NCBI GenBank assembly: GCA_016871445.1
Contig: VHDH01000002.1
Coordinates: 1-64,000 of the forward strand
Direction: 5' to 3'
DNA: 64,000 bases
From: Verrucomicrobiota bacterium
GTDB taxonomy: Bacteria > Verrucomicrobiota > Verrucomicrobiia > Limisphaerales > SXTU01
The notes beneath the pieces were generated by a model. It was not told where the DNA came from. It saw only the letters and a list, made by a program, of their open reading frames with translations, and did not search any database. A program made the position numbers and the translations under genes. Of this stretch, positions 22,103 to 56,383 are shown one piece after another (within the stretch, counting starts at the first letter, position 1; every line of letters begins with the position of its first letter).

Positions 22103-22939
22103 TCAGAACTGGAAGAAGTTAGTTTGGCCGAGCGTCGTGCTGTTGATGAAGCGGGCATTGTGCGGGCCCGTGGCGTCAACTGGCTTGGCCTTTACCACCG
22201 CGCCGTCCATCAACGTCCAGTGGAGCCGGCCACCGTGGGCGCCCCGCCTGGCCAACTGGCCCGTGAAGCGCGTGGGATCTTGATAATAACCGGGCGGCGC
22301 ATTGGCATCGTGGCCCACGACGTTGGTGCTCATGTCGGAGGTGACGAAGTTTCGGTTGGGCTGGGGCCATTGCTGCACGCGCTTGCTCGGCGCCCACGCA
22401 GCGGTCGCGCCGGTGAAGGCGTTGACGCCATTGAGCCGGCCCCACATAAGGGTGACGTTGGCGTTGCGCTCGTCCACCGGGCGGTCGTTAAAGCGCATTT
22501 CGTAGCGGCTGACCGCATTGCGAAAGTTTCCCGCAAAGCGAGACTCACCATCCAGTGCCGGACAACGCGCCACTTTCACTTCCTGCGCGGTCGTGGTCCA
22601 AGCGTTGGTTGGCGGGATGCCGAGATAACCACGGAGGAAGAACGCGCCATAAACGCGGTCGGTCAGGTCAGTGTCCTGCCGCATATATCGTGGGTAAAAC
22701 GCTGTGCTCATGCCGCCGGGGAGGAAATCGTCGTGGTCCCCGTGGTAGAGGTTCACCGCGAGAATGACCTGCTTGCTGTTGTTGGCACAAACGGCCCCCT
22801 TGCCGGCCTGCTTGGCCTTGGCCAGCGCAGGCAAGAGCATTCCCGCGAGGATGGCGATGATGGCGATGACGACGAGAAGTTCAATGAGGGTGAAAGCCTC
22901 GGTAAAAGGCTGGTTGGGTCGCATGGGTTTCATGGCCAA
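22103..22939 (-). CDS. Prepilin-type N-terminal cleavage/methylation domain protein
   Basis: [47 protein letters not shown]-terminal [11 protein letters not shown] (DUF1559-like architecture). Confidence 0.9.
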
Positions 22940-33513: not shown

Positions 33514-34272
33514 ATGAAAAGCAAATCACCAAATAACTCCCACGCGGGGTTTACGCTCATCGAACTTCTCGTCGTCATCGCCATCATCGCGATTCTGGCG
33601 GGCATGCTGCTACCGGCGCTGAGCAAGGCCAAAGCCAAGGCCCACGACGTGTCTTGCAAAAACAACCTGAAAACCTTGGCCTTGGCATCGGTGCTTTACG
33701 GGCAGGACTATGACGACATTACCCCGATTACCTTCGGACCCACTACAGGGCCTACATCAATCGGCGCTTCGGGCGTCTGGTATCGCTCGCTGGGATTTTA
33801 TGTTGGTAAAGCAGGTAACTTGGCAGCTGGACGCGCAGGCAAAGTCTTCGAGTGCCCAGGCTTTAAACCCTTTGCGGCGCAAAATACGCCCGGTTTCATC
33901 GCCGGCATTGGCATCACTTACGCCCAGAATCGCTACCTGACACAATACCCAAACCCAATCGTGAGATTTGCTCAGATTGACGATCCCACCGAGACTCAGA
34001 TCCACGCGGACACCGATGGCTATAATGCGGTGAACTACCAAGACAACTTGGCATCCTTTCCATCGGGCATTAACACCACGCTCTACCGACACAACGGCGG
34101 AACGGAGATGAGCAGTCTGGGCAACCAATACACCAGACCGCCTCCGGTTGGCTTAGGACTTCCACAGGGGCCACGGTCGGGTTCCGCGAATCTCAACTGG
34201 GTGGATGGTCACGTGTCTCAGCTCAAGTGGACCAACAACATCACCCGGCTTTTCACGATCCAACGCGACTAA
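33514..34272 (+). CDS. Prepilin-type N-terminal cleavage/methylation domain protein
   Basis: [63 protein letters not shown]-terminus. Confidence 0.9.
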
Positions 34273-41200: not shown

Positions 41201-44200
41201 CGTCACGGGCAATACCGGAGGGCTGGTTGAACCGGGCCGACCCTCCCACGCCATCGGTGGTGCCCGCTGTACCAGTTAACCCGGCTAGCACAGAACCCAA
41301 ACCAGACAACGAGACTATGCGGTGGTTCCCGGTGTCCGCGACATAAACGTTGGTGCCGACCACGGTCACAGCTCGTGGCAAATTGAGGCCCAACAACGCG
41401 ACGGGCAGCGTGACACGGCCCACGGTTCCGTTCGTGTCAATGGTGCGGATCAGGCCATTGCCGGTGTCCGCGATGTAGAGAACTCCGTTGTTACCGAGGT
41501 GCAGGCCACGCGGGGCATTAAAGCGGCCTGCGGCAAAGGACGGGGTATCATTGCTGCCGGCGTTTGCTGGCGGGGCCACCGCAGTATCGCCCCAGACCTG
41601 CAAGAAGGTGCCATTACCACTGTAACGCTTGATGAGGTTATTGCCGGTGTCGGCTACATAGATGTCGCCGTTGGTGGCCACGGCCAAGGCCGCCGGCGAG
41701 TTAAGGGTGGCGAACGACGCGGGCACGGCGGGGGCCAGCGTCAGCGGTTCATAGGTGCCGTTTGTATCGGCCGCGTTGGGCGTGTTGAACGGATTGGGCA
41801 GCGTGAGGGCTTGGCGAAACTTGAGGATACGGTTGTTAGCCGTATCCGCGACATAGACCATATTCGAGGCGTCTAACACCACGCCCTGTGGCCCACTCAA
41901 GGTGTTCGGGGTGGGCGCGGCAGTTGCGGGCGGCGGCCGGATGGCGCCGGACACGAAGTTGTCCACAGCAAAGGTCACGCCGTTGCTGCGGAGAACGGTG
42001 AGGGTGTTGGTCCAGGTCGAACCGGCGGCTGCGTTCGCCGTTGGGTTCATCGCCACGCGCAGGAATCGAGAAGACCCGCGATAAACCAAATTGGTGGTAA
42101 AATTTACCGGAGCCGGAGCGAGGTCCATGAGAGTGCGACCTTCATATTGCACGAGGATGTGATCGGGATTCGTATCAGAGAAGTGGGCCAGATCGACGGA
42201 GCCCGACGTGGATCCAAGGTCGATATCATAGACCTGCCGCGTGTTGGTGCCAGACCAGGTAAGTGCGGTGGGTGGGAAATAGTTACGGGTCTGGCCCACG
42301 GCGAAGACGCCGTCCACGTTCAGCGCCACGCCGTTAAAAAAGGTCTGTTCGGCCAGCGGTGTGGTGGTGCCGTTGTTGGTGCCACGATAACCGCTCAGGG
42401 AGCCGGGCCAGAAGTTGGTCACGGTCCAATTAGTAACGGGGAAAAAGGACAGGTTAGTCGAAGTCGGGGTGGTCACCAGGTTTGAGGTGTACCGATTGGT
42501 CACAATCGGAGTCACATAAGCGGCCACGAAACCATCATTGGTACTGTTGCGGTTAACCTTGCCAGCCGTGACAAGCTGCTGGCCGAAGTGCGCTAGCCCG
42601 CCGGGCGACTCGTGCGGCGAAGTTACCATCGCGCCGTGGCCAAAGAGCAAGTTAGTCATGCTGGTGACCAGCGACGGCGGCGAGACGACGGCGGAATACG
42701 GCGCGGGCACGAACTTGATGGGCTGTAAGCGGCCGAGGTTGTGGAAACCGTTGGCGGCGCTGCCATTGGTGTCAATGTGGGTCACGAAGTTCGTGTTCTC
42801 CGTGAAGTTGGCGCGCAGGTCGGCGGTGGTGACGCCGTTGGTGCCGCCCCGGTTTTCGAAGAGTAATGCCTTGCGGCCGCTGGGCGCGACCAAGTGCAGC
42901 ACCAGGTCAGAAATACGCGGGTGACGGATGGCCACGCCCACATCGAGGCCCGCGATAACCCGGTTATCCGGAACGTTTAAAAAGAGGTTGGTGGTGTATT
43001 CGTCGAGGAGCGGAATGGCGACGTTGGTGTAATTGAACGAGACATCGGCCGTGGCGAGATTCACGCCTAGGGTGTAGCGCAACGTGAGGGTGAGCATGCT
43101 CGCCGAGTTGTTCACGATCCGGAAGTTCCAAGGACCCGGCGAGAGCGGGGGCGAAGAGATGGGCGAAATGCGCAGATGCGGAAAGAGGGTGGCATCGAGG
43201 TTATCTAGGTCGAAGGTGCCCAAGCCGTTAGAGCCCGAGGTAGGCACGCCCGCGCTGGGTGCACTGGCCAGAATATCCACCCCGTTGCTGGAGGCGGGAC
43301 CGGGCACACCGGCCAAGCCGCCCACGATGTCCACATCAAGGTTAGTTGCGTAGCTCGGCACATTGAAGAAATCCACGAAGGACTGGCCGGCCGCGAGATC
43401 GAAGGTGCGAAAGAAGACGTTGGGATTAGTGCTGCTGGATTGACCAATGAACGGGACGATAAAGAGATCCGCGGTGGTCACCCTGCCGGTCAGGAACGGC
43501 GCGTTGTCGTAAATCTCAAAAATCCACAAACCCACACCGTCCTGCCCCAAGAAGTCGGTCACATCGCCGGGGCCGTCGGCCGGGTTACGGAAAGAGTCAT
43601 AGACGAGGTTGTTGGTGACGTAGCCGCCGGGGGGGGTGGCCCCTAGGCCCACAGAGTGGTTATTCAGGGTGACAACCGTGCCATTGTGCGTGAGCGTGCC
43701 CACGAGATCGCCAAGGTTTTCATGTACGATGATGTTCGACATCGTGATGTTTTGCATGATGACGTTGGTGGGCAAGATGCCATAAAGCGTGACGCCGCCG
43801 GGGTTTTCGGGCGTGCCATCAGGGATATCCATGGGCACGGGGAACAAGACAACCTGAAAACCGCGGTTGGTGCCGTTGGTGTTGTTGAAGAAAGGGAACG
43901 GAGCCGACGCGCCGAAGAAGCCGTAAGTGCCGCCCTGCTGGTCCTCAGACTTAATGCCGACATAAAAGACCTCTCCAAGGGAAGAATTAGTAACGCTGAA
44001 CAGCTCATAGCCGCCGCGGTTGGTGGAGCGGAAGGTGTTGGCATGCGAAAGGACGGCGGGGTCGAGATTGGTCAACCCAGCAGCTCCAGAGCCTGGATAC
44101 CCCAGCGAACTGCGCGTGACGTAGAGGTCAATGTCCGCGTCGCCGTTACGGGCGCGGGCGAGGTTGGGCGGCAAGAAGGTGGAGAAGGCCACGAACGGCC

Positions 44201-46919
44201 CGCCAATGACGTTGGGCAACTGAACGACGTTGGTAATTATATTCGTAACGCCGGCAGTGATGTTGGTAGAGAGGTTGGTGACCGTGGGGCTGGGCGCGTT
44301 CTGGTTGGTAAACACGTAGAAGTTCCACTGGTTGGTCAGACCGTTGGTGTTTGCGTTCGCCGTGCCGTTGAGGGTGAACAACGGCGAGTTAGCCCCGACA
44401 CGCTCGTTGAGATAGGGAATGCCGTTGGTGACAACGTTGACGGGGCGGTTGGTGAAGCCGTAGCCACCGCCTGCCGCTGGGAAGGTGACGGTCACGCTAG
44501 TGGCCGGGTTGTCCGTGGAGATAACCAGCGAGTAATCCTGCGCGACCTGGTTGGTATTCCCAGAAACGGCGTTGACGTTGACCTTCCGGCCAATGACATA
44601 CACGCGGTAAACGTTGGCAGCCGTGTTCGTGAGGGAGATGAAGACGTTCTCCACGTTGTTAACCGAGTCGCGCTGGCTGATGCTGCTGGGCGTGGTGGGC
44701 TGGGAGACAACGCTACCGGGGGCAATATTGTTGCCCTCGAACTGTGAGCCGTTGACCACCAAGTTGGTGACGTAAAGGTCAAGGTCGTTGACCAGTTTGA
44801 CGGACGAGATCGGGTTGCCCGGCGGATCCGTCCACGCCAACGTGATCTTGAGGTTGTTCGTGCCGCCGGGGATGGGGGGGACGGAGACATCAAAGGCGTG
44901 GTACTCGCCAGAGGCGACGTGATTGGTGAGGAAGGCGTTCTCCTCGACCAGCACGATGGGCGCGGTGGCCGAGGCGGAGGCGGACAGCAGGGCGATCCCG
45001 GCGACGGACGGCAGCGTATTGCTGACCGATGGGATGCCCCAGCCTTGGTGTGTGACGGGGTTGTTAACCGCAAAGTCATAGGCGGGACCGAGGGACTGGG
45101 CGCGGTTGATGAGGAGCGCCTTATTCAACGAGGGGCGCAGTCCGTTGGTCCGACCAAAGTTCGAGCGGAAGAACTCCTCCACCAGCGCGAGTACGCCGGA
45201 GACCTTGCCAGCCGCAAGGCTGGTGCCGGACTCGTATCGCCACTGTGAATTGCCCAAGGCCGCGTCCGCCGGCTGCGGGTTGGTGAAGGTTGACGCGCGC
45301 AGGGTGGCGATGTACTGGCCGGGAGCAACTAGGTCGGGTTTGAAGCGGCCCGCCGTGCCTTCGATGCCAACGCCCACGTTACCGCGGCTGGAAAAATCGG
45401 AGACTTGGCCAAAGCTGTCGGAGCGGGCGTTGGCCTGCGGGTCGTTGGTTGAGTTGGGTACGAGGCGGAACAACTCGGAGGACCCGACGGTGATCACGTT
45501 CTTGGCGTTGCCGGGCGAGGCGATGCTGTCGGCCGCGCCGCCGAGGCCGCCGGAGTTGGCGTTGCCCGCGTTGCCGGCGGCGAAGACATGCGTTTGCGGT
45601 TGGATATTGGTGCGCCAGTCGAGCGCGTCGCGCACCTTCTCGTCGTAGAGCGCGGAATTGATGTCGTAAGTCGAGACCGGATAGCCCCAACTGTTGTTGA
45701 CGATGAAGATGTTGGTGGCGAGGTAACCGTTGGTGATGAGCCAAAGGTTGCCGTAGTTGGTGTAGTCGGTGGCGTAGATCGAGAGCGGGTAAAGCCGGGC
45801 GCCGGGGGCGATGCCGCGATAGGTCGCGCCCGCGATGGAGCCGTTGGTGGCGGTAGGTGCGGTGCTATCCGTGCCGACGATGGAACCGGCGACCGCCGTG
45901 CCATGGCCGTCCGCGTCGGCCGACGGGCTGAACGCATTCACAAAAGTGCGGCCGGAAAGCTGCGGGTGCGCCAAGTCGACCCCCGAGTCCACATGCGCGA
46001 TGAAGACGCCGGCGCCAGTCAAGCCGAGCCAGTTGCCGCCCGACGTGCCCGTGGACACATCCAAGCGCACGCGGGAGAGATCGTTCATCAACACGGGCGA
46101 GTGCCACGCCTCGATGTTCTGCACGGCGGGCATCTGCGCCAGCGCCACGAGGCTGCCGGCGGGCGGCGCGATGGTAACGACATGGCCGAAGGGGAACGGC
46201 TGCTCGGCCTTCACCTCTGCGCCGAGCGCGGCAAGGTCAGCCTTCGCGCGAGCCTGTGTGCCATTAAACAACACCAGGTTCAACCAGCGGCCGGCGGGCA
46301 TGGGCTCCTGTCGCACGGCCAGCGGAAGCAACTGCATGTCCAGCTTATAGAACGGCTCAAAGGGCAGCACGCTGTGCACGCGCGGGGCCACGCGAAGCTG
46401 CTGGGCGACGCTGGCACTGGCGCGGACGAGGTAGGTGTTGTTGGGGACGTAACTGACGATTTCTGCCCCCGCGCCCCGCAAGACTTCACGGAACTTGCCG
46501 TCAATGCTCCCACGCGCCTGCACCAGCCAGCTCCCCGGATCGCCCTGCGCGCGCAGGTGCGGTGGGATGTTCAGACGCACCGGTTCGCGGGTCTCAACCA
46601 GCGCGTTGCGAAGCAGCACGGCGGTGTCGCTGCGGAACAATTCGGCATCGGGCCGGACAGTATTGCGGACGCGGAAAGGTAAGTGTGGGTCATCGCCCAG
46701 CGACTTAACGTGCGCGGTGGACGGCGCGGCGGCGGGGACGGCCGGGGCGACAGCGGGGCGGCGACCCGTGAAGCGTTCCCACAGGCCTGGAGCTGCTGGT
46801 ATAGCGGCAGTGCCAGCGGCGGCCTGCTCGCGCGCGCGGCGGCGCTCCCCCTCGCGAAAGAGCAGTGCGGCTCCGATTAGGAGCAGCAATCCGGCCAAAA
46901 ACCAGTTACGGCTTTTCAT
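38235..46919 (-). CDS. Giant (2894 aa) secreted S8 subtilisin-like serine protease with NHL repeats, P-like and PPC-like domains
   Basis: Signal/anchor MKSRNWFLAGLLLLIGAALLF; catalytic-type motifs VFIAHVDSGVDLAHP (Asp), DADGHGTAVAGSIVGT (His), ESGTSLAAGKVSGVLAL (Ser); at least six NHL units such as LNSPAALAVATNGDIYVADTGNNLIKRY. Confidence 0.9.
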   Translation of the reverse strand: MKSRNWFLAGLLLLIGAALLFREGERRRAREQAAAGTAAIPAAPGLWERFTGRRPAVAPAVPAAAPSTAHVKSLGDDPHLPFRVRNTVRPDAELFRSDTAVLLRNALVETREPVRLNIPPHLRAQGDPGSWLVQARGSIDGKFREVLRGAGAEIVSYVPNNTYLVRASASVAQQLRVAPRVHSVLPFEPFYKLDMQLLPLAVRQEPMPAGRWLNLVLFNGTQARAKADLAALGAEVKAEQPFPFGHVVTIAPPAGSLVALAQMPAVQNIEAWHSPVLMNDLSRVRLDVSTGTSGGNWLGLTGAGVFIAHVDSGVDLAHPQLSGRTFVNAFSPSADADGHGTAVAGSIVGTDSTAPTATNGSIAGATYRGIAPGARLYPLSIYATDYTNYGNLWLITNGYLATNIFIVNNSWGYPVSTYDINSALYDEKVRDALDWRTNIQPQTHVFAAGNAGNANSGGLGGAADSIASPGNAKNVITVGSSELFRLVPNSTNDPQANARSDSFGQVSDFSSRGNVGVGIEGTAGRFKPDLVAPGQYIATLRASTFTNPQPADAALGNSQWRYESGTSLAAGKVSGVLALVEEFFRSNFGRTNGLRPSLNKALLINRAQSLGPAYDFAVNNPVTHQGWGIPSVSNTLPSVAGIALLSASASATAPIVLVEENAFLTNHVASGEYHAFDVSVPPIPGGTNNLKITLAWTDPPGNPISSVKLVNDLDLYVTNLVVNGSQFEGNNIAPGSVVSQPTTPSSISQRDSVNNVENVFISLTNTAANVYRVYVIGRKVNVNAVSGNTNQVAQDYSLVISTDNPATSVTVTFPAAGGGYGFTNRPVNVVTNGIPYLNERVGANSPLFTLNGTANANTNGLTNQWNFYVFTNQNAPSPTVTNLSTNITAGVTNIITNVVQLPNVIGGPFVAFSTFLPPNLARARNGDADIDLYVTRSSLGYPGSGAAGLTNLDPAVLSHANTFRSTNRGGYELFSVTNSSLGEVFYVGIKSEDQQGGTYGFFGASAPFPFFNNTNGTNRGFQVVLFPVPMDIPDGTPENPGGVTLYGILPTNVIMQNITMSNIIVHENLGDLVGTLTHNGTVVTLNNHSVGLGATPPGGYVTNNLVYDSFRNPADGPGDVTDFLGQDGVGLWIFEIYDNAPFLTGRVTTADLFIVPFIGQSSSTNPNVFFRTFDLAAGQSFVDFFNVPSYATNLDVDIVGGLAGVPGPASSNGVDILASAPSAGVPTSGSNGLGTFDLDNLDATLFPHLRISPISSPPLSPGPWNFRIVNNSASMLTLTLRYTLGVNLATADVSFNYTNVAIPLLDEYTTNLFLNVPDNRVIAGLDVGVAIRHPRISDLVLHLVAPSGRKALLFENRGGTNGVTTADLRANFTENTNFVTHIDTNGSAANGFHNLGRLQPIKFVPAPYSAVVSPPSLVTSMTNLLFGHGAMVTSPHESPGGLAHFGQQLVTAGKVNRNSTNDGFVAAYVTPIVTNRYTSNLVTTPTSTNLSFFPVTNWTVTNFWPGSLSGYRGTNNGTTTPLAEQTFFNGVALNVDGVFAVGQTRNYFPPTALTWSGTNTRQVYDIDLGSTSGSVDLAHFSDTNPDHILVQYEGRTLMDLAPAPVNFTTNLVYRGSSRFLRVAMNPTANAAAGSTWTNTLTVLRSNGVTFAVDNFVSGAIRPPPATAAPTPNTLSGPQGVVLDASNMVYVADTANNRILKFRQALTLPNPFNTPNAADTNGTYEPLTLAPAVPASFATLNSPAALAVATNGDIYVADTGNNLIKRYSGNGTFLQVWGDTAVAPPANAGSNDTPSFAAGRFNAPRGLHLGNNGVLYIADTGNGLIRTIDTNGTVGRVTLPVALLGLNLPRAVTVVGTNVYVADTGNHRIVSLSGLGSVLAGLTGTAGTTDGVGGSARFNQPSGIARDGYGNLYVSDAGSHRLRRVTVSGEVQTIAGSSSGNVNNEIGTTARLNTPRGLVADRFGTLFVADSGNNSIRVVAPYQTGMPTNAFVAYFPFNGPTNSPIMGAPPVFISRGITNSVFGTELAGNSPASRDTFTGIASYRHLGTNGVGTNWLYAVGSAQFSTNSVGGFAAYDRMFLTKFATNGQPVWTYGHLPAASIRAVTNGSGAITNLVIGSGGAGYTTAPVVRIHDPLNPTPANRNIAVTVGLTAGVVTSISAPAMPLAGPFVAPRVYVQAPTSLHMPGHALAVMHGSNVVAAGFTNISDVVSTTNNQPFLLCLETTNGTLRWATNSLTSGHYNAVAVNGTNILAAGATYFAGSVAASNCLIESWTLAGTPRLTTSYSFGTGRPSQLSGLIAIEELDRAYAVGTVGSGATSDAFLMEIDLQTLAVISVITNNITNGLNFGKAITTDGVDIYVAVEGPGDGNPSDRQAAIFRYRAKNFYQPEESLNVFVGDTTWGTSVFYTNTTNVLITNTAWRLQITDTRAGGTNVVGTNGMVLSWSLNFSYAASNTVALTLPPGSAFPPITLSTGPRYFRVPVPSAATAATNLVTANGPVRVSFHASGVPADGEPGTREMFSGASTGSFVVSTNANALARLRPGSEYYVAITPMNLGASVEVTVEVSFDRTELPPQITDLAVGVPVNGLALANATVNRYAFVVPPNASAALFEITAASGNVNLYLRRSNGPASLPGPGGFDYASANPFVGTEQIFLVTNGASTNALTPGTWLLGVHNAHNAPVNFTVRATVTNATPYTVVTSANGQTHAGVTSPGNAPNTLYKLNVPAEEKALLFEVTGLNGNGDLVVRRNAFPLATTYDFGNARSNNAPEWISLRTNASLPSLAGDWYFGVLNPGTTHVTYNIMARQSVNGVLVGSTPLQIVRPPGASMLTGGTGFGFGLNGVPGEKYQVQYRTNLAATDWTVLTNLTAPLDGVISFIHSGALTNKNLYYRFLVVP

Positions 46920-47173: not shown

Positions 47174-50100
47174 TTAAAATTCAGGCAGTTGTCTGAGACT
47201 CTCGATATAGATCCGCGGCGTGACCACAGGTGGCGCGCCGGCGGGTAGGCGCGGCAAGAGGCCTGGCTCCGGCAAACCCTCCACACGCACCAACGCCCGC
47301 ACCGCAGATTCACCAGTAATTTGGTAATTCGTGACCATTAGCGAGTAAGGGCCACCAGCCACATACACGCCGCGCTCGGCCGGGCGCAGCGACTGGCCAT
47401 AGGCGTAAATCACCATGCGGGGATGTTCTTCAAGGTACATTAGCCCAAGCGTCTGCTGCGGGATGCGCTCGATGGCAACGTCATTAATGGGGTAAGGCAT
47501 CGGTGTCCAATATTGATCATTAGGATCGCCGGTGGGATACTGATTATTGTTCGCTTGCCGCGACTGGTAATACCAGCCTTTCACGTAGGCGAGTTCTCCA
47601 TTCCCGTAGAGCCTAAACGCGTAAGTCTTAGGAACGCCCAAAAATGGCGACTGCACGCTCAACTCCGGCGTGCTGAGGATGCTGCCCACCTTAGTAAAGG
47701 AGCGCTGCGGGAACGACTCCCAGTCCGTCGGCACCGCCTCTGGCGGGCCGGCCGGGCCGCTGCGCAGCGCGTAAAAAGACGTACCCAACCGTTCGACCAA
47801 ATCACCCATGTTATAGATGCCTGCGGGGTTCCATGAAGCGAGTGTGGTCCAATTAGCAAAGTTACCGACACTGACCTGCGTGAACGGGTTCTGGTTTATT
47901 GGAATCGTACCGGCGACCGCCCGGTAGTAGCTCACGAAACCGTACGGACCGTTAAAGTAGGCCACCATGTCCCCAGCACTATAGTTTAGGGTTGGCTGCC
48001 ACATGGGGATGCGCTGCTTGGCTTGGATCAGGCCATTGGTGAGGCTACCGATGAGGTTGGAAAGCGGCGCGGAAGCCGGTTCGATGGTGATGGGGACTAG
48101 AGTAACGCCGCTATTGGACAGGACAAGCGTACCACCCAACGCTGCTGCCCAAGCGAGGCTGTTGGTCTGATTGACGGAGAGCAGGCCGCGCGTGGCATCT
48201 GCATTGATGGCCGTGGTGAAGACGTCCACCAGCCGCCAATCGTTGGTCGGCATGGTGCCTGTGCTGCGCGCCCAATAGAACCAGTTGGTCGAGTTCGGGA
48301 TGTCGGACTTGAGGTAGAAGGTTTGCCACGGTGTGCCGCGATGCACGCGCCCGATCCAGCCAAGGTTTGCGAACTTGCGCTGCGGAAAATCCCAGGCATC
48401 AGAATTCCAAGCCCCCGGGTCTTTCAGGCGCATATCGAAAGCCGTGGGTAGAAGATACGGGTTGGGAAGCCCCACTCGGCCGGCCAAGTTTGGCGGCCTT
48501 CCCCAAGGACTATAAAAGTTGTTCGTTCCACCGCTGGGCCGGTAAGTATTTCCCGGGCCAAAATCCAATCTGTAAATTGTTCCCGGCGGGGCCGGCGCAA
48601 AGTTTGGCCTGACTAACTCGACGGTGCTGGATTGGAAAGGATCAGAGATGTCGCGAGTGGTGTGGTGTACCAGCGGGTCGTTGACTTCCCACGACGTATT
48701 AAAAACCACAGTGCGGGTTGGGCTAAAGGGAGCCTGGACGCTAAGGACATTAGGGTTAAGGCTTTGGTTTGGCGGTATGCTTGGTACTCCAGAGAGGCCC
48801 ATCCAGCGCCTAAACCGGTCAACTTGCTGCAGCACATTTGGGCTCGGACTACCGCTTCGCCAACGCTGAATGTTGGGAAGGATCAAATTGGTGGCGACGG
48901 CAATCTGATTGCTGATGCCCCGTGTAATCCCGAACGGCGCGGGTCCCGTTCGATTCGCTGCCCAAAAATCTCCCATATCCAGGCGATCCAAGACCGCAGC
49001 GGCGGGGTTCGTAACCAAAGGACCCGGACCTGCAACCCGAAGCGCGGCGGCGAGGTTCATGCTGGCGGTAAGGTTGGTGAGGTTGACGAAGTCAACCACA
49101 CGGTTGTTGTCCACGAGCGCGAAGATAATTGAGTTAGTGATCGTGATGCTCAGCCGCAGGTCGGGGAATCCGTTGGAGCGGTTGAAGATGCTTGGGCCAC
49201 CGGAGGCAGAACCGGCCGGGATGAAGCCGCCGTTGGTGAAACCCGCGAGCGGCGGATAGTTGGTGGCATAGGCGTAACCTTGCGCCAAGTTGGTCAAGGA
49301 GAGCTGCGGGACGTTGGTAAAAAAGAAGCTCTTGAACGCCGCATACCCGCTCGCCGTGCCGGCCCAGTTGGAATAGGACTGGCTTAGGCTGTTGGTGGTG
49401 ACATTGGTGTAAATGGGGCCGAACTCGTTGTTCAGGACTAAGCGGGCGATATTGGTGGCCACCAACTGAAGCGGGCGCGGATAAGCTGAGGAATAGGAGT
49501 TCCACGCCTCGAAGCCATAGACGTTGGTCAGCCCAATGATCAGCGACTCGTTGGTCTGAACAATGGCGGTGGCGCTGAAGTTGGTGGCATTTGTCTTCAC
49601 GAACTCCAGCCGGCGCGTGACCGAAAAGCGAGTTTGCACGCCGAACTCGTTAAAATTTGGATACCCCTTTTTAACGCCGATGATGACCGGCGTGCCGGCG
49701 AAGTGGCACAGATCCGGCCCGCCGATCGTGCCGGCCGGGGTGCTATACATCAGCATCCGCGCGTTCGGATCGCTGAGGTCATACACCGGCAGGCTCAGCA
49801 GGTTCGTAGCGTCCGTGCCGTTGGTGGTGTAGCCAATGATGTTGACGAAGTCGTTGCTGGGCCAGAGGTTGGTGTTGGCGAAGCCGAAGAGCGGCCGCCA
49901 CACCGTCGGGTAGGCGGGGGAGTTCCCGTCCGATGTGGTTGCATCGTAAAGGTTGGCGGTCAACTGGAGCAGGCGGTGAACCTCCGGCAGGTAGTAACTG
50001 AACGGGAAGATCGGAATGTTGGTAAGGCTGAGGGTCGCGTTGAGGTTGGTGCTGATAAAATTGGTGCCAAGGTAGAAGTTGGTAGCCACGATGTTAGTGT

Positions 50101-51703
50101 CCGCGCCGCCAAAGCCGGTCCAGTTTGCATTCAAATTCACGCTGGGGGTGAGACTGGCGCGCAGCATCAGCTCGGCGGCGAACGGGAAGAAGGTGTTCGG
50201 GTGCCAGTTGGTGAAGCCGGACGCCTCGCCGCCCACCGAGTCGAACCGTAAGTTCGGCGCGACGTAGCTCACGTTGGGCCAGTTGAGGTTGAATTTGTTG
50301 CTCACCGGCCAAGACTCCGTGCCCAGCACCTCCATCAGCCGGTAGGGCGCACGGCGCAGGGCGTCACCCGCCAGCGTGGGGGCGAGGTTAATGGCAAGGT
50401 TGCTCAGGTTTACGGTGAACGGCTGGTAATTTGGCCGCGTGGCCGAGAACAGCTCAGTCAAGTCAAAGTAATGACGCGCCTGGGGATGGGAGTTGGTGCC
50501 TCCGGGCCATGGAATGTTCGTGGCATCAACATTGTTTATGAACGCGGTGGAGTTCATCAGCGGGCCGTCACCTAAAACATCGAAGTTCGCGTTAGCCAAG
50601 GACAAGGCCGGCCCCGCGCCGAATAGGGCGGCGAGCGTGGGGCGATTGGCGTAACTGTCGTTGTTGCGGTAGTTCAGCAACAGGAGCGCATCGCGAAACG
50701 CATCCCTCCCGATAGGCGTCGCGGAACTCGGGGCGCCGGCAAGAGCGTAATTGTACAGATAATAGGCTGGGCCCAACTCGGTTAGCATTGCCGCGAGGTT
50801 AAATTCTTGCGGGCCAAGACCGAGGTTTCGGTAGTAACCCTCGGTGTTCAGGCCCAGACGCTTGGCTTGGTTGTGGATAAGATTGAGGTCCATCGCCTTG
50901 CCCGCGGGCGCAATGAGGTAAGCATAACGGCTCACGAAGCGGTTGTTTGGCCCATGTGGCTGGTCGGGATTTTCGAGCTGCCCGATCCAGTGCGGGTCGC
51001 CGGGGTTACGGCGATCCGTCGGGTCAAAGATGCCGTTACGGTTGAAGTCGAGGTAAAAGCGGCCAGCGCGAGACTCACTCAAGAGAACGTTGTTCGGGAA
51101 ACCGGGTGCAGGAAAGGCGCGGTTGTTGGTGAAACTAGGAGAGAATACGGGAACGCGAGGTTTGTATTGGAGGTTGCCGAGATTGACGAGCCACGGATTC
51201 AGGCCGGCGGCCATCGCGTTGGTGTGGTTAACGTTGGTGGGGCTGCTCACCGCCGGGAGAAAGCCCGCCAGGTTCTCGTAGTTGGTGGACACCATCACGC
51301 CGTAATTCCACTTGTCGCCGCTGATGAGCAGGCGCGCGAGGAGGTCCGCTTGGGCGAAATTAAGCGCAGCGTCGCGCGCGACTTGCGACTCACCTTGAGA
51401 GGTGATGGCCTCAATGGCACGGCGCTCGCGTCGCGCCACGCCTAAAAAGGCCACGACCATGAACGTGACGAGCGAGAGCATGATGAGCGTGGCCACTAAG
51501 GCAACGCCGGCGCGCCCGACTCCTTCTCCCTTTGGGCTGCGGGGGAAAAAGCTAGCCGCAGACCGGATCAGGGGGGCGGCCGCTTGTGCCATCGCAACCA
51601 ACCCTTCAACCCGGCCCTCTCCCCCCACTCCGCAAAGGGAGTGGATAAAACGATGCGACGGCCGAGCCTTCAAACCAGGATTAACTTGGCGGGGCAGCTT
51701 CAT
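47174..51703 (-). CDS. Verru_Chthon cassette protein A-like (1509 aa)
   Basis: GVALVATLIMLSLVTFMVVAFLGVARRERRAIEAITSQGESQVARDAALNFAQADLLARLL; position next to C-, B- and D-like genes. Confidence 0.8.
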   Translation of the reverse strand: MKLPRQVNPGLKARPSHRFIHSLCGVGGEGRVEGLVAMAQAAAPLIRSAASFFPRSPKGEGVGRAGVALVATLIMLSLVTFMVVAFLGVARRERRAIEAITSQGESQVARDAALNFAQADLLARLLISGDKWNYGVMVSTNYENLAGFLPAVSSPTNVNHTNAMAAGLNPWLVNLGNLQYKPRVPVFSPSFTNNRAFPAPGFPNNVLLSESRAGRFYLDFNRNGIFDPTDRRNPGDPHWIGQLENPDQPHGPNNRFVSRYAYLIAPAGKAMDLNLIHNQAKRLGLNTEGYYRNLGLGPQEFNLAAMLTELGPAYYLYNYALAGAPSSATPIGRDAFRDALLLLNYRNNDSYANRPTLAALFGAGPALSLANANFDVLGDGPLMNSTAFINNVDATNIPWPGGTNSHPQARHYFDLTELFSATRPNYQPFTVNLSNLAINLAPTLAGDALRRAPYRLMEVLGTESWPVSNKFNLNWPNVSYVAPNLRFDSVGGEASGFTNWHPNTFFPFAAELMLRASLTPSVNLNANWTGFGGADTNIVATNFYLGTNFISTNLNATLSLTNIPIFPFSYYLPEVHRLLQLTANLYDATTSDGNSPAYPTVWRPLFGFANTNLWPSNDFVNIIGYTTNGTDATNLLSLPVYDLSDPNARMLMYSTPAGTIGGPDLCHFAGTPVIIGVKKGYPNFNEFGVQTRFSVTRRLEFVKTNATNFSATAIVQTNESLIIGLTNVYGFEAWNSYSSAYPRPLQLVATNIARLVLNNEFGPIYTNVTTNSLSQSYSNWAGTASGYAAFKSFFFTNVPQLSLTNLAQGYAYATNYPPLAGFTNGGFIPAGSASGGPSIFNRSNGFPDLRLSITITNSIIFALVDNNRVVDFVNLTNLTASMNLAAALRVAGPGPLVTNPAAAVLDRLDMGDFWAANRTGPAPFGITRGISNQIAVATNLILPNIQRWRSGSPSPNVLQQVDRFRRWMGLSGVPSIPPNQSLNPNVLSVQAPFSPTRTVVFNTSWEVNDPLVHHTTRDISDPFQSSTVELVRPNFAPAPPGTIYRLDFGPGNTYRPSGGTNNFYSPWGRPPNLAGRVGLPNPYLLPTAFDMRLKDPGAWNSDAWDFPQRKFANLGWIGRVHRGTPWQTFYLKSDIPNSTNWFYWARSTGTMPTNDWRLVDVFTTAINADATRGLLSVNQTNSLAWAAALGGTLVLSNSGVTLVPITIEPASAPLSNLIGSLTNGLIQAKQRIPMWQPTLNYSAGDMVAYFNGPYGFVSYYRAVAGTIPINQNPFTQVSVGNFANWTTLASWNPAGIYNMGDLVERLGTSFYALRSGPAGPPEAVPTDWESFPQRSFTKVGSILSTPELSVQSPFLGVPKTYAFRLYGNGELAYVKGWYYQSRQANNNQYPTGDPNDQYWTPMPYPINDVAIERIPQQTLGLMYLEEHPRMVIYAYGQSLRPAERGVYVAGGPYSLMVTNYQITGESAVRALVRVEGLPEPGLLPRLPAGAPPVVTPRIYIESLRQLPEF
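51515..51650. repeat. Repeat-like leader segment in the cassette A-like gene
   Basis: gaaaaagctagccgcagaccggatcag ... ccctctccccccactccgcaaagggag; similar segment in the cassette B-like leader. Confidence 0.45.
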
Positions 51704-52533
51704 TGCAGGCCGGTACGGATGGGCACGTGCAGGTGGAACATGTGCACGGCGTCAACATTAGTAGCGAGGTAAGTCTTAGCGAGGTTGATATTGGGCAGGT
51801 AAACCCGGGCGCGCTCGGCGGTGCGATTATCCACGAACCCTAGTTCGACCTCCACATAAGAGGGGAGCGCATGGTTGGTCAGCACGGCGGCCCACGTCGC
51901 CGTGGGTACGGCAACATTGGTCGCCATCACCGGCACGCCGCTGGTGACGGCGGTGACGCGGAAGTGAATGACGTTGTCCGCGACGCGCTGCCAATAGGCT
52001 GGCGGCGGGAGCTGCAAGAAGAGCCGATTTTGGAGGCTCTGGTCAAAACGGTTTGCGTTGGTGGTCCAGCGCCAAAGCGTGCCCAGCCCGTAGGCGGCGG
52101 GCTGGGTTGGGTCGTTGGGGTCGGCCACACGGTAGCTCACGCCCATCCAGTTGAAGGGCGTAGCGGCTGGATCGAGCGAGATGAAGTAGAGGTCCTGCAA
52201 GAGGTTCTGCTGCACGACGTTCGTCCCGTTGTTGATCATCGCGAATGAGCCGGCAGACCAGTTGGTGCTGGTATAGAAGTTGACCGCCAGCATGCCGGCC
52301 GCAGAATGCCCAGCCGCCATCTGCGAAACATCCCGCTGGATTAGGTGCGCCGCCGCACGACCGGTCTCAAACTTGTCCACCTCACGTACCGCCTTGCGCA
52401 TCTGCGTCTGCGTGCGATCGAACATCTGGTAGAGCGCCAGAATGATGAACGAGATGAGACTCACCGCCACGAGCAATTCGAGGACGGTCACGGCGCGAAC
52501 GCTGGGACGAAAAATCTGGCGGTGGAGGTTCAT
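51700..52533 (-). CDS. Verru_Chthon cassette protein C-like prepilin
   Basis: VRAVTVLELLVAVSLISFIILALYQMFDRTQTQMRKAVREVDKFETGRAAAHLIQRDVSQMA; ATGA overlap with A. Confidence 0.82.
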   Translation of the reverse strand: MNLHRQIFRPSVRAVTVLELLVAVSLISFIILALYQMFDRTQTQMRKAVREVDKFETGRAAAHLIQRDVSQMAAGHSAAGMLAVNFYTSTNWSAGSFAMINNGTNVVQQNLLQDLYFISLDPAATPFNWMGVSYRVADPNDPTQPAAYGLGTLWRWTTNANRFDQSLQNRLFLQLPPPAYWQRVADNVIHFRVTAVTSGVPVMATNVAVPTATWAAVLTNHALPSYVEVELGFVDNRTAERARVYLPNINLAKTYLATNVDAVHMFHLHVPIRTGLQ

Positions 52534-53384
52534 TGGCCCCGGTAGGTTGTGCTATGGAACAACTGTCCGCCGTAGGTGCTCACCTCTAACTGTCCGCTGA
52601 CGAGCGTACGCACCACTACTTGGCGCTCGCCCACTCTCCAAGGGGTCGAGGTTGAGTCATACACCGGCCAGGAAAAGGTAAGCTTTACTTCATATAGATT
52701 GTTAACGAGGAAGGTCGTGTGACCACCATCGTTGGTTCGACCGCGCGGATACTCTAATTGCAGGGGGTCCCCCGCGTGGCGACTCACCTCAGAGGTCACG
52801 ACGTAGCTGAACGCCATGTTGGTACCCGCGAGGGCCGAGTCCCCCAAGTTCCCGCTGAGGGCGCGAAAATGCGCCCGGTTCAGGCCACCGTTAGTTGAGT
52901 TGGTCGTGTCCCAGCGAGGGATGCTCAGGCGCGCGATCACATCCAGCGGCGTCCACGCGCCCGCCGGCGGCACGGACGGCCCGCTAAAGCCAAGCAACGA
53001 GCTAGAGAGCACGGTTAGCCCCGCGCTGTTGGGACCGCCCCGGATGGCCTCCAGCAGCAACGCCGCGTCTTGCGAGATTATAGTGTCCTCCCGGTTCTCT
53101 TTCTGCACGTTCAACCCAAACGGCATCACGCCAATGATGGCGACCATTGCAAATGCCACGATGGCGAGGCTCAACGCGACCTCGACCATCGTGAAGGCGC
53201 GAGTGCGGTGGGGATGGCCTTGGGCCTTCACGTAACGAGGAGAAAAAGTGGCCGCCGAACGCATGAGGGTTGTGACCTCCAACGCCAACACGGGCACCTC
53301 CTCACCCCTAGCTTCGCAAACGGCAAGGGAGGAATGTCCACCGCAGGTGCGCGGGGCAGTTAAAGATGGCAGCTTCACCTTCAT
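52530..53384 (-). CDS. Verru_Chthon cassette protein B-like prepilin
   Basis: AFTMVEVALSLAIVAFAMVAIIGVMPFGLNVQKENREDTIISQDAALLLEAIRGG; ATGA overlap with C. Confidence 0.82.
   Translation of the reverse strand: MKVKLPSLTAPRTCGGHSSLAVCEARGEEVPVLALEVTTLMRSAATFSPRYVKAQGHPHRTRAFTMVEVALSLAIVAFAMVAIIGVMPFGLNVQKENREDTIISQDAALLLEAIRGGPNSAGLTVLSSSLLGFSGPSVPPAGAWTPLDVIARLSIPRWDTTNSTNGGLNRAHFRALSGNLGDSALAGTNMAFSYVVTSEVSRHAGDPLQLEYPRGRTNDGGHTTFLVNNLYEVKLTFSWPVYDSTSTPWRVGERQVVVRTLVSGQLEVSTYGGQLFHSTTYRGQ
53205..53345. repeat. Repeat-like leader segment in the cassette B-like gene
   Basis: gaaaaagtggccgccgaacgcatgag ... cctcctcacccctagcttcgcaaacggcaaggga, resembling the cassette A leader. Confidence 0.45.
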
Positions 53385-54388
53385 TGGATTTGAGGGCGGA
53401 TGGCGCGGCCCCGCCCGGTCACACGATCCAGTCGCACGCCGTAAAGCTCCACTACTCGGGGCGAGCCTCCCACCGGGGCGTAGTTGCCGCTGGCCAGCGT
53501 GCCACGAAAGGTTCGGCCCGCCAGATAGGTCGTCGCGCCATACTGAACGGACGACCCTGGCATGCCGGCCACGAGATACTCGATGTTCGGCACGATGCCG
53601 CCCGCCGGCACGGACACAGCGACCTCAATGGCATCGGTGGGTTCCACGATGTTGCGTGGACCGTTGGCTTCCTTACGGTGTAGGACGCTGCCTTGGATAA
53701 TCGGCAGAGTTATGTCGCCGGGGTGGCGGTGCAGTTGGCCCTGCTCATCGAAGGCAATGAACGGCAGCGGCAGCGCCCACGCGCCGGCCGACTCCTCCAC
53801 TGGGAAACTATAGGTTAGCGGACTGCCCGCAACGTTGTGGAAAATGTTGGGATTGTAGAACGCACTGGTGGGAATGAATGCGCCGTCCGGCAGGGAGTGC
53901 CATTCTGTGAGGTAACGCGGCGTATTCTGGCCCGGTTGGTCGCCCACCTGCCGGGGCGTGAAAACCACGTAACTAGTCAACTGCCCGCCGATCACGCTGT
54001 TCGCAGCCTGATTGGTGAAAAGATAATTGGTTTGAAACGCGGTGAGGCTGCCGAACCAAGACAAGTCGGGTGCGAAGACTACATACACCTTCGTACGCCC
54101 GCTCATGGCCTTGAGCCGAGCGAGGGCCAAGTCGTCCTGCAACTGCCGGGTGGCGGACTCCAATGCTTCACCCTTCTTTCCCGCTTTCGTGAACGACGGC
54201 ACGGTCATCGCTGCCAACATGCCGATGATGCCCAACACCACCAACATCTCGATGAGGGTGAAGGCAGCTACTCTCGAACCCGTCAGCCCCCCCCTCGCCC
54301 CATCCCCCTCCCCTCCTCCAAGGAAGTGAGCGGGCGCCCGCAGTGCGGGTGAAAAGTGGCTCGTCGATTGAGGGGAGGCCACGTTCAT
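53381..54388 (-). CDS. Verru_Chthon cassette protein D-like prepilin
   Basis: AAFTLIEMLVVLGIIGMLAAMTVPSFTKAGKKGEALESATRQLQDDLALARLKAMSGRTKVYVVFAP; ATGA overlap with B. Confidence 0.82.
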   Translation of the reverse strand: MNVASPQSTSHFSPALRAPAHFLGGGEGDGARGGLTGSRVAAFTLIEMLVVLGIIGMLAAMTVPSFTKAGKKGEALESATRQLQDDLALARLKAMSGRTKVYVVFAPDLSWFGSLTAFQTNYLFTNQAANSVIGGQLTSYVVFTPRQVGDQPGQNTPRYLTEWHSLPDGAFIPTSAFYNPNIFHNVAGSPLTYSFPVEESAGAWALPLPFIAFDEQGQLHRHPGDITLPIIQGSVLHRKEANGPRNIVEPTDAIEVAVSVPAGGIVPNIEYLVAGMPGSSVQYGATTYLAGRTFRGTLASGNYAPVGGSPRVVELYGVRLDRVTGRGRAIRPQIQ

Positions 54389-54392
54389 AAAC

Positions 54393-55121
54393 TTACTTCC
54401 AACTTAGGATATTGTCCTTATTCGGCTCCGCATTTGCAGCAGTGGATGTGCTAAACATTCCATCCGGACCGAAGGAGAAGACCATCGCAGAGTCCTTAAG
54501 CGCCCAGTTGCCACCGAACTGGACCAATCCCGCGCCCCCTACACTCACGGTGCTGAGGCCATAAACCGGATTGGAAACCCAGCCATCGTAGTTTAAGTCT
54601 AAGGAGACGATGTATGGACTACCCCACGGGTCACGCATCACGCCGTCGGTGCCCAGGCCCGCGCCTGAGGCAGCCCCAGAGGACTTGGCATTAAAATAAG
54701 GAGTGCGCCGCGGGTTTTTGGCATTGCCTTGGATCGAGGCATGGGGCGTGTAGCCCGGGAAGGTTCCAGCCGTGAGGATGACCATCAGTTCCGCGTTGCT
54801 GGCCTGATAGCCGGTGCCGTTGACGATGTTCGTGCCGTAGCCGGTGCCCGTGGTGCCATACGTAAAGTCGCTGCCCACGCCCGCCGCCGCGCTGGATGCC
54901 GGCAGGCGGCTATAGTCGTTCTGATATAAGCTAATGGCACTCTTGATGTCCGCCGAGTCTTTCTGACCCTGCACGGTCTTGGCCCTTTTCTTTACATTGC
55001 CCACGGCGGGCAGAATGAGGCCGGCAAGCACGCCAATAATACTGATGACCACCAGCAACTCGATCAGGGACATGGCCTGCCGAGGTTTGCAGATGCGGGT
55101 GAGATAAGGATTAAGTTTCAT
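54393..55121 (-). CDS. Type II secretion GspG-like prepilin
   Basis: ORF to 55193; start taken at [91 protein letters not shown]. Confidence 0.86.
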   Translation of the reverse strand: MKLNPYLTRICKPRQAMSLIELLVVISIIGVLAGLILPAVGNVKKRAKTVQGQKDSADIKSAISLYQNDYSRLPASSAAAGVGSDFTYGTTGTGYGTNIVNGTGYQASNAELMVILTAGTFPGYTPHASIQGNAKNPRRTPYFNAKSSGAASGAGLGTDGVMRDPWGSPYIVSLDLNYDGWVSNPVYGLSTVSVGGAGLVQFGGNWALKDSAMVFSFGPDGMFSTSTAANAEPNKDNILSWK

Positions 55122-55135
55122 ATGGGTTATTGAAA

Positions 55136-55807
55136 TCAGTTCCAGTTGCCGATGATGTTGGTGCCGCCGCCTCGCCGCTTGAACTCGGCCCAAAGGTCGA
55201 AACTCTTCGGATTGCGACCGTTAACCGGATACGCACGGTAGCGCCAGACGTTGGTGACGCCCATGGGATGCTCGGCGGGAACCCGCAGGAACATCGCGGC
55301 GTTAGCGATGCCAGAAACGGCGTTGGTGACATAAACGAAGGTAGCATTTTCTCCCGAGCCGCCACCGGTGATGAAGGAACGTGCTTTCCCGCTCGGGGGG
55401 GTGACGTTCACGAAGCCAGCCACCGCAAAATAATGATTAACCTCATTTGGACCGGCCGTGCGAATGGTGTGGGCCGGATCCAATTCAGAGGTGAAGTTTG
55501 CACCTGACCGCCGCACGCCACCCAACTCGTAGGCAAGCGGGTTCCAAGCAGGGTTGTTGGAGGCCATTATCGGGTTGTCCGGCGGATAAGCCCCGTACTG
55601 CTTCTTATAACTCTCGATGGCCAGCACGAGTTTGGCGAGTTGAGTCTTTATTGCCGCCTCCTCCTTTTTGCCGCGCGCCGCGGCCAGGCCCACCACCGTG
55701 AGGCTAGCAATGATGCCGATAATCGAGATTACCATCAGCAATTCTATAAGCGTAAATGCCCGCCAGCCGCACCCTAATTGTCCCTTGTTGCTCGTCATCA
55801 TTCTCAT
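55136..55807 (-). CDS. GspG-like prepilin
   Basis: [68 protein letters not shown] overlap with the upstream antitoxin-like gene. Confidence 0.86.
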   Translation of the reverse strand: MRMMTSNKGQLGCGWRAFTLIELLMVISIIGIIASLTVVGLAAARGKKEEAAIKTQLAKLVLAIESYKKQYGAYPPDNPIMASNNPAWNPLAYELGGVRRSGANFTSELDPAHTIRTAGPNEVNHYFAVAGFVNVTPPSGKARSFITGGGSGENATFVYVTNAVSGIANAAMFLRVPAEHPMGVTNVWRYRAYPVNGRNPKSFDLWAEFKRRGGGTNIIGNWN

Positions 55808-56097
55808 CGTATTGCCTTATCTTTGAGTTCTTGTTCCATTCGTTCGCTTAACCACTGCTTGACCATGCTCTGATAGTTCAAAAAGCGCGATCGTGCTAGG
55901 CGCTTGATGCGCGAGAGCATCCGCGGATCCATCCGCAAGGTGACCGTCACCGACTCCGTCGATTCCGCGCCCGCCACCACCGCTGCATCCATCAGCCTCA
56001 GGTCCAACCGATGCTGCTGCCAAAAATCCGCCTCGTCGCCCTCGCTCTCGAAGGCCGGCACCAAGTCCCAATTGGAAATCACCGTCATTTTAATCAC
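55804..56097 (-). CDS. BrnA/CopG-type antitoxin-like protein
   Basis: DEADFWQQHRLDLRLMDAAVV...SVTVTLRMDPRMLSRIKRLARSRFLNYQSMVKQWLSERMEQEL (RHH-like C-terminus). Confidence 0.75.
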   Translation of the reverse strand: MIKMTVISNWDLVPAFESEGDEADFWQQHRLDLRLMDAAVVAGAESTESVTVTLRMDPRMLSRIKRLARSRFLNYQSMVKQWLSERMEQELKDKAIR

Positions 56098-56383
56098 GCG
56101 TTTCCAGCAGTTGCGTCACGCGCCGCTTGTAAAAGAACTGCTCTTCCTGCAAAAACTCCCGCGCGTAGATTACCCGTACCTGCTTGCCGTTCGTGCGATA
56201 CACGCTGAACACGCCCACCCCACGCGCCGAACGACCCAGATTAAAATAGCGCGCCTGACCCGCAAATCGCGGGGAGTCCGGCAGCAACCGCACCACAAAG
56301 GCGTCTTCAAAGGAATCCTCTACGTCCTGTTGCGTCAGCTCACCCGTTGGGGTGAACGAGGGTTGATTCCAATCAAAATCCAT
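56090..56383 (-). CDS. BrnT-like toxin
   Basis: MDFDWN...DVEDSFEDAFVVRLLPDSPRFAGQARYFNLGRSARGVGVFSVYRTNGKQVRVIYAREFLQEEQFFYKR resembles the BrnT fold; overlaps the antitoxin by 8 bp. Confidence 0.72.
   Translation of the reverse strand: MDFDWNQPSFTPTGELTQQDVEDSFEDAFVVRLLPDSPRFAGQARYFNLGRSARGVGVFSVYRTNGKQVRVIYAREFLQEEQFFYKRRVTQLLETRD

What the first reader, a model, noticed from the sequence alone, without database searches (positions are those of the whole stretch)
47174..56383. Verru_Chthon cassette-like locus of prepilins as a tightly coupled minus-strand run with two GspG-like prepilins and a TA pair
Seen in sequence: four consecutive ORFs with type IV pilin-like N-terminal hydrophobic segments are joined by ATGA stop/start overlaps at 51700-51703, 52530-52533 and 53381-53384. 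Two more prepilins (54393-55121, 55136-55807) precede them. Established: the Verru_Chthon cassette A-D families were named as a conserved gene set of unknown function in Verrucomicrobium and Chthoniobacter. Inference: this is a dedicated pseudopilin-like export or surface-assembly machine. No ATPase, platform protein or prepilin peptidase is in the window, so it would use components encoded elsewhere.
Basis: partly seen in the sequence, partly recalled or inferred. Interest (0 to 1): 0.75.

Follow-up and report, generated by a model that had tools for sequence, protein, structure and literature searches.

The report
Giant-tipped type IV pilus operon
This is an order-wide, nearly invariant gene set for the tip of a type IV pilus in a mostly uncultured group of Verrucomicrobia; its presumed cap protein is several times the normal size, in this genus carries chitin-binding-type modules, and is always followed by a giant secreted protease.

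Summary
The prepilin run is real: six prepilins (G1-G2-D-B-C-A in transcription order), with ATGA stop/start overlaps at the stated places. It is not the Verru_Chthon cassette by test: all four proteins fall far below the curated cut-offs, similarity of A to true cassette A stops after ~63 residues, and gene order and neighbours differ.

The locus is the order's own T4P-type minor-pilin operon. In 65 loci the order BrnT-BrnA-G1-G2-D-B-C-A-giant subtilase is nearly invariant. In 35 of 57 loci with enough flank, PilC (preceded by PilB/PilT) lies directly upstream; in this genome those motor genes sit on another contig. Protein A is found in 172/196 genomes of the order and in no other sampled Verrucomicrobiota genome.

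D-B-C-A matches the H-I-J-K tip set: A lacks Glu5 in 65/65 loci and its N-terminus matches GspK, not the other pilins. In the window's genus A carries CBM5/12-like (chitin-binding-type) inserts. The subtilase holds PilY1's position, follows A in 54/54 loci, and keeps its catalytic residues.

I infer a retractile pilus whose tip binds polysaccharide and carries or exports the protease. Tip display and ligand are untested.

The parts
56090..56383 (-). BrnT-like protein (97 aa)
   Evidence: PF04365 17.7 bits, below cut-off 34.5; present in 59 loci at this position, median pairwise identity 65%
55804..56097 (-). BrnA/CopG-type antitoxin-like protein (97 aa); probable regulator of the operon (inferred)
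   Evidence: PF12441 42.9 bits, above cut-off 28; 59 loci, median pairwise identity 69%, the most conserved gene of the locus
55136..55807 (-). G1: prepilin, candidate shaft pilin
   Evidence: N_methyl above cut-off; Glu5 in 61/61 orthologs; TIGR01710 below cut-off
54393..55121 (-). G2: prepilin, candidate shaft pilin, sister of G1
   Evidence: N_methyl above cut-off; Glu5 in 62/62 plus one truncated; G1-G2 profile match probability 99.8
53381..54388 (-). D: minor prepilin of the H position (GspH/FimU-like)
   Evidence: best NCBIfam hit GspH TIGR01708 E=3e-8, below cut-off; Glu5 in 63/63
52530..53384 (-). B: minor prepilin of the I position (GspI/PilV-like) by gene order; sequence support weak
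   Evidence: TIGR02598 N-terminus only, below cut-off; true TIGR02598 members also hit XpsI/PilV; Glu5 in 63/63
51700..52533 (-). C: minor prepilin of the J position (GspJ/PilW-like)
   Evidence: GspJ TIGR01711 E=1.6e-4 and TIGR02599 E=4e-6, both below cut-off; Glu5 in 64/64
47174..51703 (-). A: giant minor prepilin of the K position (1509 aa precursor, predicted mature 1443 aa)
   Evidence: no Glu5 in 65/65; N-terminus matches GspK profile (prob 93.8, E=1.8e-7) and not the other pilins of the locus (prob at most 6); ortholog model pLDDT 84.4 with 60-residue N-terminal helix
47714..48001 (-). Genus-specific insert in A: two CBM5/12-like modules
   Evidence: only Pfam hit PF02839 CBM_5_12 E=0.001 (19.5 bits, cut-off 26.2); predicted fold matches chitin-binding domains (Foldseek prob up to 1.00); absent from all other genera aligned
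47501..47632 (-). Second genus-specific insert in A, CBM-like by eye (GWYYQ motif); no Pfam hit for a relative's copy
38235..46919 (-). SUBT: giant subtilase (2894 aa) with N-terminal hydrophobic segment, S8 domain, P-domain and NHL repeats; in the position of pilY1
   Evidence: PF00082 E=6e-37; follows A in 54/54 loci with enough flank; catalytic Asp/His/Ser in 51/53, 53/53, 53/53

Best explanation
The locus encodes the pilin set and tip of a type IVa-pilus-like machine special to this verrucomicrobial order. D, B, C and A are its H-I-J-K minor pilins: they prime assembly in the inner membrane and end up at the tip, with giant A (the K subunit) as cap. G1 and/or G2 form the shaft. The motor is the PilB-PilT-PilB-PilC cluster, on contig C35 here and directly upstream of this operon in most relatives; PilT would make the pilus retract. 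A's bulky ectodomain, with CBM5/12-like modules in this genus, binds polysaccharide. The giant subtilase is carried at the tip, or pushed out, as the effector in the place PilY1 holds in Proteobacteria. BrnT/BrnA most likely regulates the operon. Shown: gene content and order, conservation, missing Glu5, module similarity. Inferred: tip location, glycan ligand, display or export of the subtilase, BrnT/BrnA as regulator.
For: Gene order BrnT-BrnA-G1-G2-D-B-C-A-SUBT nearly invariant in 65 loci and in 80 loci of named genomes, a set that overlaps the first. PilC preceded by PilB/PilT directly upstream, same strand, in 35 of 57 loci with at least 2 kb of flank. The C35 PilT is above the curated PilT cut-off, 425 against 319 bits. 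Prepilin peptidase and secretins present. Glu5 in all G1/G2/D/B/C but in no A, as in PilX and GspK (PMC7541494). A's N-terminus matches the GspK profile but not other pilins. Same order as H-I-J-K; FimU=H, PilV=I, PilW=J, PilX=K (PMC7248040), with PilY1 riding on PilX (PMC7541494). No canonical PilY1 above cut-off in this genome, while the subtilase is linked in 54/54 loci with a conserved catalytic triad. CBM5/12 similarity by sequence and by predicted fold.
Against: Beyond about 63 residues A matches neither GspK nor any solved structure. Assignment of B to I rests on order and weak profile hits. In this genome the motor cluster is unlinked, and other GspE/GspF systems in the genome could drive the set. 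CBM hits are below Pfam's cut-off, and these inserts are absent from other genera. The NHL propeller of SUBT is not conserved among orthologs, so it resembles PilY1 by position and size only. No experiment.
Confidence: 0.66

Rival explanations
1. A type II secretion-like pseudopilus dedicated to exporting the giant subtilase: D-B-C-A is a pseudopilin tip that pushes SUBT through a secretin, and no long pilus is made.
For: G-(G)-H-I-J-K is also the gspGHIJK order; K caps T2SS pseudopili; the linked partner is a secreted protease, a common T2SS substrate class (general knowledge); the best or second-best named hits for D and C are GspH and GspJ. PMC7541494 itself suggests that PilY1 is an analog of T2SS substrates.
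Against: The linked motor cluster includes a bona fide PilT retraction ATPase, which T2SS lack. No secretin or GspC/L/M is seen in the conserved locus. The genome already has two T2SS clusters whose own GspK carry T2SSK domains (C1, C21). G1 and G2 lack the T2SSG domain.
Confidence: 0.22
2. One reading: a divergent member of the Verru_Chthon cassette A-D with that family's unknown export or surface-assembly role.
For: Each of the four proteins has its matching cassette family among its NCBIfam hits, as best or second-best. A's best profile match is true cassette A over 63 columns (prob 95.9). True cassette proteins themselves weakly hit GspK, XpsI/PilV, GspJ and GspH, so both are HIJK-like sets with a giant K.
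Against: All scores far below cut-off. No similarity of A beyond the N-terminus. True cassettes mostly run A-B-C-D, and G1/G2, BrnT/BrnA, PilB/T/C and SUBT were not recognised in the flanks examined; several follow PEP-CTERM/beta-repeat proteins; above-cut-off hits fall in other families of the class and none in this genome.
Confidence: 0.08

Closest known systems
T4aP minor pilin-PilY1 clusters (fimU, pilV, pilW, pilX, pilY1) of Pseudomonas and Myxococcus
   Same: four minor pilins corresponding to H-I-J-K, K without Glu5, a very large non-pilin secreted protein encoded with them; PilB, PilT, PilC motor
   Different: K is about 1200-1670 aa instead of a small PilX; the last gene is a subtilase, not a PilY1-domain protein; two extra pilins and BrnT/BrnA belong to the unit
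Modular pilins (Streptococcus sanguinis PilB/PilC; Thermus ComZ)
   Same: binding modules grafted on minor pilins, placed at the pilus tip; PilC's module is a lectin (PMC9934059)
   Different: here the modules (CBM5/12-like) sit inside the K-type subunit, which is itself over 1000 aa
Verru_Chthon cassette A-D (TIGR02600, TIGR02598, TIGR02599, TIGR02596)
   Same: a giant K-like prepilin with I-, J- and H-like prepilins, in Verrucomicrobiota
   Different: other families of the class, other gene order, no similarity of A beyond the N-terminus, different neighbours
T2SS pseudopilins gspGHIJK
   Same: gene order; K lacks Glu5; N-terminal K profile
   Different: no T2SSK or T2SSG domains; linked to PilT; giant K

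Membership tests
Verru_Chthon cassette | Proteins A-D above curated cut-offs of TIGR02600/02598/02599/02596 | tested here: not met
   A/B/C/D 24.4/24.3/26.3/33.1 bits against 332.3/51.4/256.5/70, N-terminal ~30-63 residues only
Verru_Chthon cassette | Full-length homology of A | tested here: not met
   hhalign matches 63 of 1242 columns; the remainder prob <1
Verru_Chthon cassette | Gene order of true cassettes | tested here: not met
   true loci mostly A-B-C-D (one B-C-A-D); here D-B-C-A
Type IV filament HIJK minor pilin set | Four prepilins, K lacking Glu5 and H, I, J having it | tested here: met
Type IV filament HIJK minor pilin set | K-type N-terminal profile, specific against other pilins | tested here: met
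   GspK prob 93.8; other pilins of the locus at most 6
Type IV filament HIJK minor pilin set | GspK/PilX fold of the ectodomain of A | tested here: not met
   no Foldseek PDB hit at E<=0.01 with the 1192-aa ortholog model; no PDB sequence match to a pilin. A small core inside a giant chain could be missed
Type IVa pilus system | PilB, PilC and retraction ATPase PilT associated with the pilin set | tested here: met
   directly upstream in 35/57 relatives; in this genome on contig C35, unlinked; PilT above cut-off
Type IVa pilus system | Prepilin peptidase and secretin in the genome | tested here: met
   C183; C1, C21, C42, C152
Type IVa pilus system | Filament observed, extending and retracting | not testable with these tools
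   needs microscopy
PilY1 family (for SUBT) | PF05567 PilY1 domain | tested here: not met
   Pfam scan of SUBT shows no PF05567; nothing above cut-off in the genome
BrnT-BrnA toxin-antitoxin | Family models above cut-off | tested here: inconclusive
   PF12441 CopG_antitoxin met; PF04365 BrnT 17.7 against 34.5, not met; no PDB match for BrnT, no PADLOC match for either

The most novel reading that the evidence does not exclude
A retractile pilus that carries a ~300-kDa active protease and polysaccharide-binding modules on its tip: the cell reaches out, grips glycan through A, and places the subtilase on the target, with BrnT/BrnA recruited as the pilus operon's dedicated switch.
Probability: 0.3. 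Interest if true: 0.82.

Novelty: new variant of a known kind. Interest (0 to 1): 0.62.

Why it matters
It ties an unnamed >1200-aa protein family, nearly universal in one bacterial order and not found outside it in the sample, to a concrete role as pilus tip cap. It offers an explanation of the puzzling Verru_Chthon cassette as a parallel HIJK-like set with a giant K subunit. It also predicts a polysaccharide-binding, protease-carrying pilus in mostly uncultured bacteria. A single deletion (A or the subtilase) in a cultured member of the order would test it.

Tried and rejected
Verru_Chthon membership: rejected on cut-offs, profile comparison and gene order. Orphan T2SS pseudopilin operon (my first idea from the GHIJK order): demoted after PilB/PilT/PilC was found upstream in relatives. 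SUBT as a PilY1 homolog through its beta-propeller: rejected, because the NHL repeats are not conserved and PF05567 is absent. GspK ectodomain by fold: not supported. Similarity of the 'PWQT' motif shared by both A families: not significant (hhalign E=0.1, prob 0.6). BrnT in PDB and PADLOC: nothing. Promoter and terminator scans: not above chance. A first GspK profile picked wrong ORFs and was redone. Literature searches in the held library found no paper on Verru_Chthon or on pili in Limisphaerales, and none on minor pilins of Verrucomicrobia beyond passing mention.

Full report
OBSERVATION. The six minus-strand prepilin ORFs and the three ATGA overlaps are exactly as described; a fourth overlap joins BrnA to G1. 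In 63 related loci the same junctions are typically 4-base overlaps, so the coupling is conserved and not chance.

NOT THE VERRU_CHTHON CASSETTE. The NCBIfam cassette models for A, C, B and D are among the hits of the corresponding proteins, but match only the first 30-63 residues and score far below the cut-offs. I fetched true cassettes, whose A proteins score up to 1705 bits, and compared profiles: window-type A and true A share 63 columns (prob 95.9) and nothing else. True cassettes mostly run A-B-C-D (one B-C-A-D), in several cases after a PEP-CTERM/beta-repeat protein, and no G1/G2, BrnT/BrnA, PilB/T/C or subtilase was recognised in the flanks examined. They are nevertheless informative: true A, B, C and D weakly hit GspK, XpsI/PilV, GspJ and GspH, and in the loci read true A also lacks Glu5. 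Both systems therefore look like HIJK sets with an oversized K.

THE REAL UNIT. Protein A has homologs in 172 of 196 genomes of the window's order and in none of the other 288 Verrucomicrobiota genomes sampled at E<=1e-10. Titles of homologous contigs name Limisphaerales and Pedosphaera; a few public titles (Klebsiella, Akkermansia, Methylacidimicrobium) look mislabelled. In 65 loci the order is BrnT-BrnA-G1-G2-D-B-C-A-SUBT with few exceptions. BrnT and BrnA are both present in 59 of 62 loci that hold G1, and SUBT follows A in 54 of 54 loci with at least 1.5 kb downstream. In 35 of 57 loci with at least 2 kb upstream, PilC, preceded by PilB and PilT where the contig allows, lies directly upstream on the same strand. 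In this genome the same four genes (PilB-PilT-PilB-PilC) sit on contig C35, and PilT is above its curated cut-off. A prepilin peptidase (C183) and secretins are present.

ANATOMY. G1, G2, D, B and C all carry Glu5, while A never does, in 65 loci. Many orthologs of A start with a leader of about eight residues, e.g. MKxxSQRG|VALVITLIMLS. A's N-terminus matches a profile of 32 GspK proteins (prob 93.8, E=1.8e-7) but not profiles of G1, G2, D, B or C (prob at most 6), so the match is K-specific. Loss of Glu5 is shared by PilX and GspK, and PilY1 is placed on PilX (PMC7541494); FimU/PilV/PilW/PilX correspond to H/I/J/K (PMC7248040); HIJK sets are thought to initiate the filament, are capped by K and are interchangeable between systems (PMC9934059). 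D-B-C-A-SUBT thus parallels fimU-pilV-pilW-pilX-pilY1.

PROTEIN A. AlphaFold2 on a 1192-residue ortholog with 57 sequences gave pLDDT 84.4 and pTM 0.78: a 60-residue N-terminal helix, a large beta-rich region (550-734) and closing beta-strands at the C-terminus. Foldseek found no PDB relative at E<=0.01, so for the bulk of A no solved relative is known. The window and seven relatives of its genus carry inserts absent from all other aligned orthologs. The first insert hits only Pfam CBM_5_12, in the window and in a relative (E about 0.001, below cut-off). The predicted structure of this region (pLDDT 73) matches chitin-binding domains of chitinases and chitin deacetylases with Foldseek probability 0.97-1.00, e.g. 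2d49 at 1.8 A over 46 columns, although E-values below 0.001 are reached only by the deacetylases and some phage tail proteins. The modules lie in the C-terminal part of A. Chitin is only one possible ligand.

SUBT. The protein has an N-terminal hydrophobic segment, a subtilase domain, a P-domain, a variable middle (NHL repeats here, LamG or PPC in others) and a conserved C-terminal part. Catalytic Asp/His/Ser are kept in 51, 53 and 53 of 53 orthologs. It is PilY1-like by position and size only; no PilY1 domain scores above cut-off in the genome.

BrnT/BrnA. These are the most conserved genes of the locus (median identity 65-69% against 32-42% for the pilins) and occupy one fixed position across the order. 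That is unlike a mobile toxin-antitoxin pair. I infer a regulatory role; toxicity is untested.

JUDGEMENT. Shown: gene content, order-wide conservation, motor linkage, K-type N-terminus, module similarity. Inferred: tip location, ligand, display or export of the protease, regulation. The main rival is a T2SS-like pseudopilus for the protease; PilT linkage and the two separate T2SS clusters in the genome (C1, C21) argue against it but do not exclude it.

Noticed in passing
own genome G000:C1, about 47.4-59.3 kb (L049 from 17383 through L050 to 9319): A T2SS cluster (E-F-G-H-I/J-K-L-M) ends in a secretin of about 3939 aa with about 40 tandem short secretin N-domains (a usual GspD is ~650 aa with three). 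Secretin domains in open frames of 3112-5155 aa occur in at least 12 of 58 genomes of the order.
   Followed up: partly
51522-51644 and 53225-53308: The long leader regions of A and B contain copies of a ~120-bp interspersed repeat also found at G000:C46:11619-11741 (74% and 70% identity), apparently lengthening the prepilin leaders in this genome.
   Followed up: partly
own genome, 59 places, including 33514-34272 (+) and 22103-22939 (-) in the window: The genome has 59 prepilin-type N-termini at E<=1, most of them in single frames of about 240-420 aa outside the clusters examined; most pilin-like proteins of this genome have no assigned machine.
   Followed up: no
prepilin cleavage sites of G1, G2, D, B and C across the order: About a third to three quarters of orthologs have Ala instead of Gly at position -1 of the prepilin cleavage site, while A almost always keeps Gly.
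   Followed up: no
own genome G000:C137:1-4170 (L054): A further GspF-H-I-J-K cluster cut by the contig end, with a GspK-like protein (101 bits to NF037980, cut-off 130).
   Followed up: no
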